Source: Pseudomonas sp. BN411 (GTDB taxonomy: Bacteria > Pseudomonadota > Gammaproteobacteria > Pseudomonadales > Pseudomonadaceae). From it: a stretch of 64,000 bases of DNA. The DNA is taken from the NCBI RefSeq assembly GCF_029871235.1, contig NZ_SSOM01000069.1, positions 1 to 64,000 of the forward strand. The letters are read 5' to 3'. The notes under the pieces are model-generated. The model saw only the letters and a program-made list of their open reading frames with translations, was not told the DNA's origin and ran no database searches. A program made the translations under genes and the position numbers. Below are positions 22,742-54,377 of this stretch, one piece after another; positions within the stretch are counted from its first letter, which is position 1, and every line of letters begins with the position of its first letter.

Positions 22742-23146
22742 ATGCTTGGTTACTACGCGCAATACAGCAAGGAATACATCACCACCCTGATGATCGTGAC
22801 CACGCTGTTTTTTGCCCTGCCGATATTCATTGCCCCGCTAGCCTGGGCAAGAGCCATGCGCTGGACCATTCCGGAGCATAAGCACCTGGCTATCTATTTC
22901 GGCCGATGCCTTGGCGCCTTTATCCTCATCGTTGAAATAACCATGTTGCGCTCTGTCACGACTGGTACCAGTTATAGCTATGCCTTCGATATTCTCTTTC
23001 TGGTGTTCACGCTGATGTTTGTCGTGCATGTATATGGCGCAATAAAACGAATCCAGCCGATCACCGAAACATTGGAGATAGGCTTCTGGATGATCCTCTT
23101 CGTGCTCAATGTCTTGTTCTATCCGGCTGCCACTATCACACTTTGA
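22742..23146 (+). CDS. Hypothetical four-helix inner-membrane protein
   Basis: A 134-residue protein with four strong hydrophobic segments (about residues 12-32, 45-66, 76-98 and 110-131). The ATG at 22742 has AAGGAG six to seven bases upstream. Composition is less GC-rich than the core genes around it. I do not recognise a family and see no conserved polar motif within the helices that would identify transport or enzymatic function. Confidence 0.65.
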   Translation: MLGYYAQYSKEYITTLMIVTTLFFALPIFIAPLAWARAMRWTIPEHKHLAIYFGRCLGAFILIVEITMLRSVTTGTSYSYAFDILFLVFTLMFVVHVYGAIKRIQPITETLEIGFWMILFVLNVLFYPAATITL

Positions 23147-23176
23147 TCCTTGTGGCCTGCAAGTTGCTCTACCGAT

Positions 23177-23240
23177 TCGTAGGATGGGTAGAGCGGAGCG
23201 AAACCCATCAATCTTGTCGCGGTGGGCATCGCTCCGCTTG
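23177..23240. repeat. REP-like hairpin (GTAGGATGGG family)
   Basis: CGTAGGATGGGTAGAGCGGAGCGAAACCCATC followed by GGTGGGCATCGCTCCGC. It lies between the convergent membrane-protein and BRO-N genes. Confidence 0.75.
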
Positions 23241-23257
23241 CTGAGCACCGCTTCAGA

Positions 23258-23767
23258 TCAGCCGATCACAATCGGCGGGCGCTGGAGCAGGTCCGGGCAA
23301 TCGCCCAGATACAACCACGCCTTGCCCTGCCAATGCAGCACTTCGATATCCCGTTCCTGCCACTGGATCAATTCGCGGTAGGGGCCTCTGCCGTGGAAAC
23401 GTTCCTCTTCCCGCAGGCGAGGAATCACCTCGCGGGTCAGCCATTGGCGGATGCAGCGATTTTCCGGGTGGTAGTAGATGATCAGCACGGCATAGACGCC
23501 GGACTCGCTGATCAGCAATTCCTGTTCGAAGTCGCCATGGCTGTTGCGCATCCAGACGCGCTGCAACTGGTCTTCATCCAGGTTGCGCGACACACGCTCA
23601 GGCAGCGGCGCATGGTTGATCAACCGGGCCAGATCGCTGGCGGAAAACCAGGGCTCTTCATCCAGCAGCACCGCGCGCAACTGGCGCTTGTGGCGGATGA
23701 AGGTGGCGGGCATCAGGACTTCGGCGTGCGGGGGAGGGGCGGGGTGAAACTGGGGGAACTCGGGCAT
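23258..23767 (-). CDS. BRO-N domain protein (phage antirepressor-like)
   Basis: A 169-residue product from the Met at 23767, with AGAGG eight bases upstream. Residues about 20-125 match the BRO-N/antirepressor fold: RHKRQLRAVLLDEEPWFSASDLARLINHAP, LISESGVYAVLIIYYHPENRCIRQWLTREVIPRLR. No C-terminal DNA-binding or KilA-C domain follows. The frame stays open to an ATG at 23935, and the upstream residues (LAPAQNLCSVGSGLIQDPKG, then PVSGGFLSS) resemble the Ash/Icd leader peptides that precede phage antirepressors, so a 225-residue fusion is possible. No other phage genes are present. Confidence 0.78.
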   Translation of the reverse strand: MPEFPQFHPAPPPHAEVLMPATFIRHKRQLRAVLLDEEPWFSASDLARLINHAPLPERVSRNLDEDQLQRVWMRNSHGDFEQELLISESGVYAVLIIYYHPENRCIRQWLTREVIPRLREEERFHGRGPYRELIQWQERDIEVLHWQGKAWLYLGDCPDLLQRPPIVIG

Positions 23768-23813
23768 ATCCATTACCTCTGGTCGCTTCTTAGGGCTTGG
23801 TTGGAGTCGGGAG

Positions 23814-23983
23814 CTAAGAAACCCACCAGAGACGGGCCGGACGTATTCCCCTTTCGGGTCTTGTATTAGTCCACTCCCGACAGAGCAGAGGTTTTGTGCG
23901 GGTGCGAGTATGCCGCAGGCACAAAAAAGCCGCATAGCTGTCGGGTGCGGAGGACCGCTCTGGTGTTAGGCGTTTCTTAGGCG
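23814..23983 (-). ncRNA. Candidate C4-type antisense RNA with its targets
   Basis: On the minus strand, an upstream segment CTAAGAAAC-N5-ACACCAGAG (23980-23958) is complementary to CTCTGGTGGGTTTCTTAG downstream (23831-23814), and CACCCGACAG (23947-23938) is complementary to CTGTCGGG-AGTG (23883-23872). The order a'-b'-b-a in front of an Ash-like leader and an antirepressor-like gene is the layout of C4 antisense RNA systems of phages P1, P7 and P4. RNA ends are not determined. Confidence 0.5.
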
Positions 23984-24067
23984 CCGGGGACAGAGGCTAT
24001 GGGCGGAGCAGGGAAGCGGCAATGCAGTTGCAGCGTGGGATTTGGCTGATTGGGAGGCGTGAAGCCG

Positions 24068-24098
24068 TGTAGGGTGGATGACGCTCCTTTCATCCGCC
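24068..24098. repeat. Left REP of the RAYT unit (GTAGGGTGGATGACGC family)
   Basis: A 31-bp element TGTAGGGTGGATGACGC followed by TCCTTTCATCCGCC. It is inverted relative to 24692-24722 and differs from it at two positions. The 351-bp gap 23768-24118 also holds the C4-like segment. Confidence 0.9.
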
Positions 24099-24118
24099 AA
24101 GCAGAGCCAATCCCCCGC

Positions 24119-24652
24119 TCATTCACCCCAATTACCCGCATCGTTCTCCAAAGCATCACCCGCCCAATCCACCGGATAAATCCCATCTCGCACCGCTCGG
24201 TGAAAGCTCGAATACGGCCAATCCCTCACGCTTTGTACGTGACCATGTTTGACCGGATTGAAGTGGATGTAATCGAAGTGCCGCTGGTAATCGAGGTCGT
24301 CGCGAATCAGGTGTTCCCAATAGCGGCGCTGCCAGATTCCCCGTTCACCACGGGCGTGTTGGGGATAGGTGCGTGATTCGGCATTCGACAAGCGTTTCGA
24401 GAAAGCGAATTTGATCGCCTTCCAACGATCCGCAAACGCCATGTCGCCAGGAGGCAGCGTCCAGAGGCAGTGCATATGTTCGGGTAGCACAACCCAGGCA
24501 TCGATATGGAACGGGTGACGTTGTTTTACAGAACGGACCACGGTGCGCAGCAAGTCGATTTCACGCACCAGCAGGTTGTCGCGGCGGTCGCGCAGATTGA
24601 CGGTAAAGAAGTACGTGCCGCCCGGCATCCGTGCACGGCGGTAGTTGGACAT
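24119..24652 (-). CDS. REP-associated tyrosine transposase (RAYT)
   Basis: A 177-residue Y1 (IS200/IS605-like) HUH-family nuclease. MPGGTYFFTVNLRDRR, the HUH-type metal motif in VVLPEHMHCLWTLP (His-x-His) and the C-terminal YIHFNPVKHG region with WPYSSFHR are hallmarks of TnpA-REP. A Tyr in this C-terminal helix (YIHFNPV or DYQRHFDY) should be the nucleophile. AGGAGGAG lies just before the ATG. The gene is bracketed by inverted REPs at 24068-24098 and 24692-24722, so the unit is a REPtron; such enzymes are domesticated and process REP hairpins with a GTAG foot. Confidence 0.93.
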   Translation of the reverse strand: MSNYRRARMPGGTYFFTVNLRDRRDNLLVREIDLLRTVVRSVKQRHPFHIDAWVVLPEHMHCLWTLPPGDMAFADRWKAIKFAFSKRLSNAESRTYPQHARGERGIWQRRYWEHLIRDDLDYQRHFDYIHFNPVKHGHVQSVRDWPYSSFHRAVRDGIYPVDWAGDALENDAGNWGE

Positions 24653-24691
24653 GACTCCTCCTGAGTCTTTGGGCCTTGTGTCTTGGAGGGT

Positions 24692-24722
24692 GGTGGATGA
24701 AAAGAGCGTCATCCACCCTACA
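24692..24722. repeat. Right REP of the RAYT unit
   Basis: GGTGGATGAAAAGAGC followed by GTCATCCACCCTACA; the inverse of 24068-24098 with 29 of 31 positions equal. It lies upstream of the transposase gene. Confidence 0.9.
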
Positions 24723-24753
24723 CAAGCCTGAGAGTTGTACGCTTCCCGGTTAT

Positions 24754-25671
24754 CTACCTCGTTCCCTCATTATCCGTTCCGGGGTAGCGCCGGGCGAGAG
24801 TGGACGAAAGTTCTCTAAGCAGTGCTTGGTAAGTGTGAAACAATTGAATTGCCTTGAGGAGCTCCTGCCAGCAGGCATCATAGGCTTGTTGGAAGCTCAA
24901 TGGCTGGGTACCACCGAAGCCATAACATACTGCCTTCTTTGTCGGATGCTCGACAAACTGTGCAGTACCGTCAGGTTGCTTTACCAACTCGCTCCAAGGC
25001 TTGATAGAGCGTCTCACGAAGCTGGTCTCACCCTGCTCAAAACGTGGCGCAATTCCGTGGCTGGCGAGGTCACGAAAGTTGTAGCTGGCTGTGCTGAAGG
25101 CCTTGTTATCTAGGTGAGTAAGCGCCTGCAGAAAAGGAGCGAAGCTCGTGTAATTTGCGCCTATTCGCTTTAACTGCATCTCGCGCTTCCGGCGACTCAG
25201 ATACCCATGTTCGTCCTGATCCAATCGATCCTTGTAGTCTTCTTGTAATGCCAGATTGGCTTGATGCAGGGCGTTGGTTGCTATAGAGCCGAAGCGTTCG
25301 CGAGTCGAACTTGGTTGCAGCATGCAGTAGAAGGCCAAATGCTCAACATACTGCCGGCGTATAGACCATTCCTGCTCACCTTCGAACTGCTTGAGTACGT
25401 CAATCCAGAGAGACCAATCCACCAAGTATCCATACCAACTGTGAAGTTGGTTGATGGTTTCTCTCAGGTCGTTTGCTATCGCTAACTCCATAAATGCCGG
25501 TCCCCAGTAGATCTTTTGGATTTTGTCCGAGAGATCGTAGGATAGGGGATACTCAATTTTGTCTATGAAGACCTCAAGCCTTTCCAGGAATAGTAAGTGC
25601 GCCGACTCGTAGAGTTCGCGTATTGCTCTTCGAGCCTCTCTGCACGGTATCTCTTCAGTTGTTTCAGACAT
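24754..25671 (-). CDS. Orphan protein with HEPN-like Rx4H motif
   Basis: A 305-residue, mostly helical, soluble protein. GGAGGAAGG precedes the ATG by about five bases. The composition is clearly less GC-rich than nrdB next to it. Residues 198-206 read NFRDLASHG, giving Arg200-x4-His205, the signature of HEPN RNases, set between helices (about 170-200 and 255-295) as expected; the following GIAPRF fits the style of Cthe_2314-type HEPN proteins. No nucleotidyltransferase or antitoxin partner is adjacent. The family assignment is my inference; otherwise it is a hypothetical accessory gene. Confidence 0.55.
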   Translation of the reverse strand: MSETTEEIPCREARRAIRELYESAHLLFLERLEVFIDKIEYPLSYDLSDKIQKIYWGPAFMELAIANDLRETINQLHSWYGYLVDWSLWIDVLKQFEGEQEWSIRRQYVEHLAFYCMLQPSSTRERFGSIATNALHQANLALQEDYKDRLDQDEHGYLSRRKREMQLKRIGANYTSFAPFLQALTHLDNKAFSTASYNFRDLASHGIAPRFEQGETSFVRRSIKPWSELVKQPDGTAQFVEHPTKKAVCYGFGGTQPLSFQQAYDACWQELLKAIQLFHTYQALLRELSSTLARRYPGTDNEGTR

Positions 25672-54026: not shown

Positions 54027-54111
54027 ATCGATTCGTTGGGAAATTGCCTGACCTGCCGTACGCCCTGTCCGATTTGACGCTACCCCGCGCACCCTCTAAC
54101 CTTCGCCGCTG

Positions 54112-54296
54112 CCTCAGGTGCCCCTTGGCTCGTGCCGAAGGGGTGAAACAGGGAAGCCGGTCCATTCCTACGAAGATTCCGGCGCTGCCCCCGCAACGGT
54201 AGGCGAGTCGAATGCCGCAATCGGCCACTGTGCTCCAGCATGGGAAGGCGCGGCACAGGAGCACATCGCTCCACTCGCAAGCCCGGAGACCGGCCT
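54112..54296 (+). promoter_or_regulatory. Cobalamin riboswitch
   Basis: All conserved parts are present in order: GGGGTGAAACAGGGAAGCCGGT, GCTGCCCCCGCAACGGTAGGC, GCCACTG (54224-54230), and the B12 box AGCCCGGAGACCGGC (54280-54294). It precedes btuB and the cob genes and should shut off expression when adenosylcobalamin is plentiful. A GCGGA-TTGT-TCCGC hairpin at about 54314 may be part of the expression platform. Confidence 0.95.
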
Positions 54297-54377
54297 GTCG
54301 CACAAAGGGCATCGCGGATTGTTCCGCATGCAGTACCCACTGAGATGTCGCGCGGGTGGCACGACGGAGATCCAACC

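What the first reader, a model, noticed from the sequence alone, without database searches (positions are those of the whole stretch)
23258..23990. Possible C4 antisense RNA / Ash leader / BRO-N antirepressor module outside any prophage
On the minus strand, segment a' (CTAAGAAAC...CACCAGAG) and b' (CACCCGACAG) are followed by complementary b and a segments inside a leader frame that reads like phage Ash/Icd peptides (APAQNLCSVGSGLIQDPKG, PVSGGFLSS), which runs in frame into a BRO-N antirepressor-like protein. This reproduces the c4-icd-ant immunity logic of phages P1/P7/P4, where a processed antisense RNA blocks the leader. Here it stands alone, so it may be a captured regulatory switch acting on resident prophages, a decoy, or a selfish unit. 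The in-frame leader-antirepressor fusion is itself unusual.
Basis: partly seen in the sequence, partly recalled or inferred. Interest (0 to 1): 0.75.

Follow-up and report, generated by a model that had tools for sequence, protein, structure and literature searches.

The report
Antisense-RNA switch before lone antirepressor gene
A bacterial chromosome carries, outside any virus, a small RNA that looks built to pair both with its own leader and with the ribosome-binding site of a virus-type switch gene; the same RNA is filed in databases as an unrelated plant-pathogen RNA, so two literatures may describe one kind of switch.

Summary
The complementary segments are real, beyond chance, and C4-like logic is right in kind, but the parts were mislabelled. 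The RNA between them is not an Ash/Icd peptide leader: it is Rfam RF02221, sRNA-Xcc1 (23881-23798, minus, 68.7 bits, cut-off 53), in the place that C4 antisense RNA (RF01695) holds before five other BRO-N matches of this genome. In 44 distinct sequences a1 and a vary together (variable helix 100% paired, 74 double-sided changes, no one-sided). Copies in one genome mostly fit only themselves (a1: 48/57 own, 9/140 cross). The in-frame fusion is accidental. The module lies among ordinary chromosomal genes; phages carry it before antirepressors, other bacteria also before SymE-type toxins. Best reading: a chromosomal C4/CI/IsrK-type switch with sRNA-Xcc1 as antisense RNA. Rfam does not link sRNA-Xcc1 to C4, nor did any passage I saw. 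Direction of regulation and role of BRO-N are inferred.

The parts
24119..24712 (-). REP-associated-type transposase gene (Y1_Tnp), same strand, upstream of the module
   Evidence: Pfam PF01797 25.7 bits, cut-off 23; matches to it (some fragments) in 13 of 27 genus copies of the module, 8 of them ending 231-253 nt before the RNA
23994..24022 (-). possible weak promoter, TTGCCG - 17 nt - TAGCCT (read by eye)
   Evidence: lies in the block conserved between genus copies, which mostly starts 168-187 nt before the RNA (medians); the strict sigma-70 scan found none
   Evidence: covariation with segment a in 44 distinct sequences, the window among them
23923..23950 (-). terminator-like hairpin CCGCA-11 nt-TGCGG followed by CTTTTTT; its loop carries most of b1 (23947-23938). 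An alternative hairpin GAGCGG/CCGC at 23960-23947 could compete with it
   Evidence: sequence and conserved columns in 45 rows; the strict scan (loop 3-8) does not list it
23798..23881 (-). sRNA-Xcc1-family RNA (RF02221), proposed processed antisense RNA
   Evidence: 68.7 bits, gathering 53, E 2.4e-10; E 7.6e-12
23874..23883 (-). b: mainly the 5' strand of the outer stem, complementary to b1
   Evidence: sequence; pairs together with a1:a in one predicted interaction
23814..23831 (-). a: hairpin-3/junction segment complementary to a1 and to a2
23802..23805 (-). UCCA directly 3' of the outer stem, acceptor-stem-like
   Evidence: CC at these two tail positions in 86 of 114 instances, background 6.5%; RNase P processing is an inference
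23776..23793 (-). a2: second copy of the target, overlaps the BRO-N Shine-Dalgarno AGAGG (23780-23776)
   Evidence: sequence; sRNA:a2 -32.6 kcal/mol, shuffled -25.9 +/- 3.9, 14 of 300 as low
23258..23773 (-). BRO-N antirepressor-like gene; start ATG 23773 or, with better spacing to AGAGG, ATG 23767
   Evidence: Pfam Bro-N; PHROG anti-repressor families
23933..23935 (-). upstream in-frame ATG of the mechanical ORF; judged accidental

Best explanation
A self-contained chromosomal switch of about 800 bp built like the C4 (P1/P7), CI (P4) and IsrK (Gifsy-1) systems, with sRNA-Xcc1 as the antisense RNA. One transcript would run a1 - b1/terminator - sRNA-Xcc1 - a2/SD - BRO-N. Most transcripts probably stop at the terminator and give a short leader RNA (a1 b1). 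Read-through transcripts carry sRNA-Xcc1, which is probably cut out, possibly by RNase P. Its segment a pairs with a2 on BRO-N mRNA, covers the Shine-Dalgarno site and keeps BRO-N off; a and b also pair with a1 and b1, so the leader RNA is a decoy or activator that can free a2 (as short IsrK does), or the pairing favours termination (as CI does in P4). The variable a segment gives each copy its own specificity, so several copies coexist in one genome. BRO-N, if made, would act as an antirepressor on resident prophages. Shown here by sequence comparison: architecture, covariation, specificity and position. Inferred: transcription, processing, direction of regulation, target of BRO-N.
For: RF02221 hit. 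a1:a covariation: variable helix 100% of cells paired, 5 of 7 pairs with changes on both sides, none one-sided; whole structure 97.6% paired, shuffled 84.6%. In 114 instances a perfect run of 7 or more to own a1 in 97, to own a2 in 66; to segments of other genomes in 12.8% and 6.0% of trials. In 21 multi-copy genomes own a1 48 of 57, another copy's a1 9 of 140; own a2 33 of 57, another copy's 8 of 140. C4 loci have by eye the same order a1b1 - RNA - a2 at the SD, with own-copy preference, and in the one of eight scanned C4 loci where Rfam's c4-a1b1 reached its cut-off it sits where a1b1 sits here. Own genome: C4 before five BRO-N matches, sRNA-Xcc1 before the window's. In four phage records looked at (of 31 with a match) an RF02221 RNA precedes a gene annotated as antirepressor. 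Two near-identical Xanthomonas copies differ at 11 of 300 bases, four of them the two matching doublets of a1 and a. sRNA-Xcc1 is a discrete 88-nt RNA in Xanthomonas campestris (PMC2996969, passages) and stands in a table of E. coli EDL933 RNAs with 40293 in its first count column (PMC5331693, one passage, column heads not seen). IsrK and P4 precedents (PMC4825925, abstract and sections 6, 12, 13, 21).
Against: No expression data for this organism. No consensus promoter or terminator by the strict scan. a:a2 in a fixed register is only 76.1% paired and a slide of +2 gives 81.0%; I attribute this to types that differ in register. Runs of 6 or more to foreign segments are not rare (36.6% of trials for a1, 20.6% for a2). 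Outside the family a2 is less frequent (27 of 46 at 6 or more), and in eight Xanthomonas loci no comparable a2 was found within 264 nt (best downstream runs 5-7, upstream 7-8). c4-a1b1 reached its cut-off in only one of eight C4 loci scanned. IsrK activates rather than represses, so the sign is open. No covariance-model cross-hit between RF02221 and RF01695, so common ancestry is not shown.
Confidence: 0.66

Rival explanations
1. One reading: the upstream a'/b' RNA is the C4-type antisense and represses an Ash/Icd-like leader peptide that is fused or coupled to BRO-N.
For: The complementarity is real, and the upstream segment ends in a terminator-like hairpin, so a short RNA is plausible.
Against: No C4 hit; leader frame open in 7 of 25 and in the window's phase in 11 of 25 genus copies; ATG in 11 of 45 rows; no family match of the peptide; C4 proper occupies the other position in sister loci.
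Confidence: 0.1
2. IsrK-like activator: the short terminated leader RNA (a1 b1) is the trans-acting regulator; it pairs with a and opens the a:a2 or cis a1:a fold, switching BRO-N translation on; sRNA-Xcc1 is mainly a cis structure or by-product.
For: Shown by mutants for Gifsy-1 IsrK and anrP (PMC4825925, sections 12, 13, 21); Rfam isrK overlaps a1b1 plus terminator in one C4 locus, 48.2 bits, below its cut-off of 50; a1:a is kept more widely than a:a2.
Against: isrK did not match the window at E<=5; sRNA-Xcc1 is seen as a discrete RNA elsewhere. Not exclusive of the best explanation.
Confidence: 0.4
3. P4-like attenuation only: sRNA-Xcc1 binds a1 and b1 in the nascent leader and causes termination; a2 is incidental.
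For: b1 lies in the terminator-like loop; Xanthomonas copies keep a1:a without a comparable a2; P4 CI pairs with seqA and seqC and causes termination, as summarised in PMC4825925 section 21. Not exclusive of the best explanation.
Against: In Pseudomonadaceae 63 of 68 copies have a run of 6 or more to segment a within about 60 nt after the RNA, against 20.6% of trials with foreign segments.
Confidence: 0.25
4. A decaying prophage remnant without function.
For: A phage-type gene without other phage genes among the neighbours tested; some copies elsewhere are broken (L031, L035).
Against: Intact gene, and coordinated changes of a1, a and a2 between copies that share flanking genes.
Confidence: 0.1

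Closest known systems
C4 antisense RNA (RF01695, clan CL00128) with c4-a1b1 (RF03163), phages P1/P7
   Same: Order a1b1 - 87-position RNA - a2 over the SD - antirepressor gene; outer stem with CC tail; variable recognition segment in the third hairpin.
   Different: Separate covariance family without cross-hit; shorter outer stem (9 against 17 pairs) and larger second hairpin; different core sequence; here chromosomal.
sRNA-Xcc1 (RF02221)
   Same: The RNA itself, over the gathering score.
   Different: The passages I saw describe it as an sRNA of Xanthomonas or Xylella with predicted trans or virulence targets, or as upstream of symE in integron cassettes (PMC2996969, PMC12189769, PMC12444791); they do not mention a1/a2 pairing or C4 as its relative.
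IsrK (RF01394) / STnc1160 / anrP of Gifsy-1
   Same: Terminated leader RNA, downstream complementary processed RNA, antirepressor gene, trans pairing.
   Different: No isrK match in the window; IsrK acts through a short ORF (orf45), and no conserved ORF is seen here.
P4 seqA - CI RNA - seqC
   Same: One antisense RNA with an upstream and a downstream target.
   Different: CI works by transcription termination (as summarised in PMC4825925); P4 sequence not compared here.
SymE-SymR type I toxin-antitoxin
   Same: Other sRNA-Xcc1 modules carry SymE-family genes (7 of 71 ORFs; 3 of 5 Xanthomonas ORFs tested).
   Different: symR is a cis-encoded RNA (PMC12444791 passage); here the RNA lies upstream on the same strand and the payload is BRO-N.

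Membership tests
sRNA-Xcc1 (RF02221) | Covariance-model score over the gathering cut-off | tested here: met
   68.7 bits against 53
C4 antisense RNA (RF01695) | Covariance-model score over the cut-off | tested here: not met
   no match at E<=5 in 22800-24800
C4 antisense RNA (RF01695) | Antisense segments complementary to an upstream target and to the ribosome-binding site of the downstream antirepressor gene | tested here: met
   complementarity and covariation; a:a2 in a fixed register inconclusive; binding itself not tested
C4 antisense RNA (RF01695) | Processing of the precursor by RNase P | not testable with these tools
   only a CC tail after the outer stem, 86 of 114; RNase P processing of C4 seen here only as a title (Hartmann 1995) in a reference list
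c4-a1b1 (RF03163) | Covariance-model match of the upstream target | tested here: not met
   no match at E<=5
IsrK (RF01394) | Covariance-model match | tested here: not met
   no match at E<=5
Ash/Icd leader peptide | Homologous, conserved small peptide with start codon | tested here: not met
   no PHROG match at E<=1, no such Pfam match of the 225-aa ORF at E<=0.001, frame, phase and ATG not conserved
BRO-N domain proteins (PF02498) | Pfam match over the cut-off | tested here: met
   35.5 bits against 25.6
Prophage | Phage structural, integrase or replication genes around it | tested here: not met
   27 neighbouring ORFs from 8.5 to 45.4 kb scanned against Pfam: 17 match ordinary bacterial families or a Y1 transposase, 10 match none at the limits used, none matches a phage family; not every ORF was scanned, and these neighbours were not run against PHROGs

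The most novel reading that the evidence does not exclude
sRNA-Xcc1 and C4 are two forms of one widespread class of portable RNA guards: a processed antisense RNA placed between its own decoy and its target holds an interchangeable harmful or disruptive gene (antirepressors, SymE toxins, unknown genes) in check, each copy with a private 7-nt password that switches by matched changes. In chromosomes they would work like RNA-antitoxin modules, releasing BRO-N or SymE when transcription or RNA processing is disturbed, for instance by an incoming phage, and so inducing prophages or stopping growth.
Probability: 0.3. Interest if true: 0.82.

Novelty: new variant of a known kind. Interest (0 to 1): 0.62.

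Why it matters
It gives sRNA-Xcc1, described in the passages I saw as an orphan or virulence-associated RNA, a concrete testable partner (its own leader) and in many copies a target (the Shine-Dalgarno region of the next gene), and puts it beside C4, CI and IsrK. It shows that such switches are abundant outside prophages, with insulated specificities in one genome, and that one RNA architecture is coupled to both antirepressor and SymE-type genes. This makes the question of how C4/CI-type immunity specificities arise and stay insulated testable with natural variants.

Tried and rejected
Rejected: C4 or c4-a1b1 membership by covariance model; leader-peptide reading; exclusion of same-type copies within a genome (1 same-type pair observed, 2.45 expected, P=0.26), so 'one type per genome' is not claimed; a conserved antiterminator, because its columns do not vary in A2 and Xanthomonas copies do not show it clearly (by eye). 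The first cognate test by duplex energy used two wrong offsets (L065, L075), corrected; I rely. The 114 instances are all 68 family matches listed and the best 46 of 93 listed outside the family; all 114 were kept, broken ones included. A2 holds 45 of 114 instances, chosen by a pattern that requires the a1 core, the a core and AGAGGTA, so only its variable helix is a fair test. Pfam of downstream ORFs: 71 of 112 mechanically chosen ORFs, near-duplicates left out by me; two of the 114 instances gave no ORF. In one search eight of nine Xanthomonas loci were examined, L234 left out because it ends just after the RNA. A draft of this report said that most other copies have CAGCGG where the window has the ATG; the recount gives 17 of 45, with 11 of 45 having ATGCGG.

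Full report
What is there. On the minus strand the window reads, 5' to 3': a weak possible promoter by eye (TTGCCG-17-TAGCCT, 24022-23994; the strict scan lists none), a1 (23980-23958), a terminator-like hairpin with b1 in its loop (23950-23923), an RNA that matches Rfam RF02221 sRNA-Xcc1 (23881-23798, 68.7 bits, gathering 53), a2 (23793-23776) over the Shine-Dalgarno AGAGG, and a BRO-N gene ending at 23258 (Pfam 35.5 bits). Segments b (23883-23874) and a (23831-23814) lie in the RNA.

Chance. Leader against RNA gives -54.2 kcal/mol with both a1:a and b1:b in one predicted interaction; 2 of 300 shuffled leaders do as well. RNA against a2 gives -32.6; 14 of 300 shuffles do as well. The stronger test is comparison. 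Of 18 genomes of the genus 15 have RF02221 matches, 27 in all, two of them under the cut-off; of 248 in the family 50 at E<=1e-4, 49 over the cut-off; of 398 drawn from the phylum 55, 40 over the cut-off. I took 114 instances: all 68 listed in the family and the best 46 of 93 listed outside it (two offsets corrected). For 45 of these with the same core (pattern selection) alignment A2 gives, for the variable a1:a helix, 100% paired cells over 44 distinct rows (window included), five of seven pairs with changes on both sides and none one-sided; for the whole structure 74 double-changed cells against 19.4 +/- 3.5 in shuffles and 97.6% paired against 84.6%; slides of 1-3 columns give 35-52%. The number of pairs with a double change (5 against 4.4) and of further pair types (9 against 8.9) does not exceed the shuffles. 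The a:a2 helix in one fixed register is 76.1% paired, and a slide of +2 gives 81.0%: by eye types CACCTAG and ACCAGAG use shifted registers, so this count is inconclusive. Without fixing a register, over all 114 instances a perfect run of 7 or more is found to own a1 in 97 and to own a2 in 66, against 12.8% and 6.0% of trials with other genomes' segments; at 6 or more the foreign rates are 36.6% and 20.6%.

Specificity. Six forms of the variable a segment occur in A2. In 21 genomes with more than one copy in my set, the RNA fits its own a1 (run of 7 or more) in 48 of 57 and another copy's in 9 of 140; own a2 33 of 57, another copy's 8 of 140. A test for avoidance of equal types within a genome was not significant (P=0.26). 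Types seem to switch at one site: copies that share a flanking gene with the window (hyp172, dioxygenase or nrdB, each on one side and within the 1-1.5 kb fetched) carry different types, a1, a and a2 together; that they are one orthologous site is inferred. Two Xanthomonas copies differ at 11 of 300 positions, and four of these are the two matching doublets in a1 and a. Two related coliphage loci (L083, L084) show the same by eye.

Relation to C4. RF01695 C4 is common in the family: 78 of 119 genomes, 21 to 25 matches in each of four genomes examined, at positions spread over the chromosome. In the window's own genome there are seven C4 matches and one RF02221 match. Of eight BRO-N matches, one is a 39-residue fragment; of the other seven, five have C4 directly upstream (one of these, on C45, has a stop inside), the window's has sRNA-Xcc1, and one (C50:147285) has neither. 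In 30 C4 loci of four genomes own a2 fits with a run of 6 or more in 27 of 30 against 30 of 196 for other copies of the same genome, own a1 23 of 30 against 52 of 196. Rfam places C4 and c4-a1b1 in clan CL00128 and RF02221 in none. Neither model hit the other's locus, so I claim equal architecture, not proven homology.

Mechanism. PMC4825925 (abstract and sections 6, 12, 13, 21 read) shows that short IsrK, a terminated leader RNA, binds the read-through transcript in trans and switches on translation of the antirepressor AnrP, and compares it with P4, where CI RNA pairs with an upstream and a downstream sequence and causes termination. PMC12197685 (passages) states that c4 RNA blocks translation of ant mRNA around its ribosome-binding site. 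The window has the parts for each. I take sRNA-Xcc1 as the brake on BRO-N at a2 and the short a1b1 RNA as its decoy; the sign is inferred. A CC tail after the outer stem, in 86 of 114 instances against 6.5% background, fits an acceptor-like end; RNase P cleavage of the C4 precursor was seen here only as a reference title. sRNA-Xcc1 was mapped as an 88-nt RNA in Xanthomonas campestris (PMC2996969, passages).

Not a peptide leader, not a prophage. Of 25 genus copies counted (two of 27 dropped for a distant ORF start), 7 are open from RNA to ORF and 11 share the window's phase; the ATG is present in 11 of 45 rows of A2; no PHROG family matched the leader frame. Of 27 neighbouring ORFs between 8.5 and 45.4 kb scanned against Pfam, 17 match, among them nrdA, nrdB, a dioxygenase, LysR regulators, two-component systems and acyl-CoA enzymes, and a Y1 transposase; 10 match nothing; none matches a phage family. 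Conservation between genus copies mostly spans about -170 to +630 around the RNA start (medians), i.e. leader to BRO-N stop, and then ends, except in copies that share a site or the transposase.

Payloads. Of 71 downstream ORFs (chosen from 112), 25 match Bro-N, 7 SymE_toxin, 3 Rha, 2 P22_AR_N, 2 HTH_38, and KilA-N, ORF6N, DUF3077, Rap1a and P22_AR_C one each; the rest match nothing. Phages: a blastn search found 31 records with a match; in the four opened, the gene after the RNA is annotated Ant, AntA/AntB or antirepressor (RNA confirmed). 461 of 5426 E. coli genomes hold a relative of the phage form. In Xanthomonas nine of nine loci examined match RF02221 and have by eye a perfect 7-nt a1:a match, and three of five ORFs tested are SymE, in agreement with PMC12444791 (passages), but no a2 comparable to the a1 match was found in the eight that could be tested. 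So a1:a is the general part, and a2 at the SD a frequent, not universal, one.

Literature. I searched the open-access library for sRNA-Xcc1 (18 papers), RF02221 (2), sRNA-Xcc1 with antirepressor (0), C4 antisense RNA (17), C4 antisense RNA with BRO family (0) and c4-a1b1 (1). No passage that I saw links sRNA-Xcc1 to C4; one paper (PMC12189769) lists both among Rfam annotations of Xylella. Chen 2011, a functional paper on sRNA-Xcc1 known to me from reference lists, is not held and was not read; nor were most of the 18 papers, or the supplement of PMC2864571. So the absence of a link in print is only as strong as that.

Verdict.

Noticed in passing
window 54099-54312 +: Cobalamin riboswitch (RF00174, 107.1 bits).
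   Followed up: no
window 24119-24712 and genus loci: A RAYT-type transposase (whole or fragment) matches in 13 of 27 genus copies of the module, in the module's orientation upstream of it, 8 of them ending 231-253 nt before the RNA; a composite or mobilised unit is possible.
   Followed up: partly
L101, L069, L047, L043, L097 (another genus of the family): The module lies downstream of nrdB there too, which suggests a site older than the genus; two recognition types occur among these copies.
   Followed up: partly
genomes G082, G089, G017, G002: 21 to 25 C4 antisense RNA matches per genome, widely spread.
   Followed up: partly
L087:6134-6216: A P. aeruginosa plasmid carries the module and BRO gene beside mer genes and a Tn3-family transposase.
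   Followed up: no
L066, L110-L116 (G522), L068, L119-L122 (G628): Genomes with nine and five sRNA-Xcc1 matches; in several of these copies the a2 run after the RNA is weak.
   Followed up: partly
PMC12189769 table: Xylella fastidiosa Temecula1 has five sRNA-Xcc1 homologues about 380 nt apart; tandem modules of this kind could explain the array.
   Followed up: no
L031, L035: Copies that lost the downstream BRO-N gene or the end of the RNA, so the RNA can outlive its payload.
   Followed up: no
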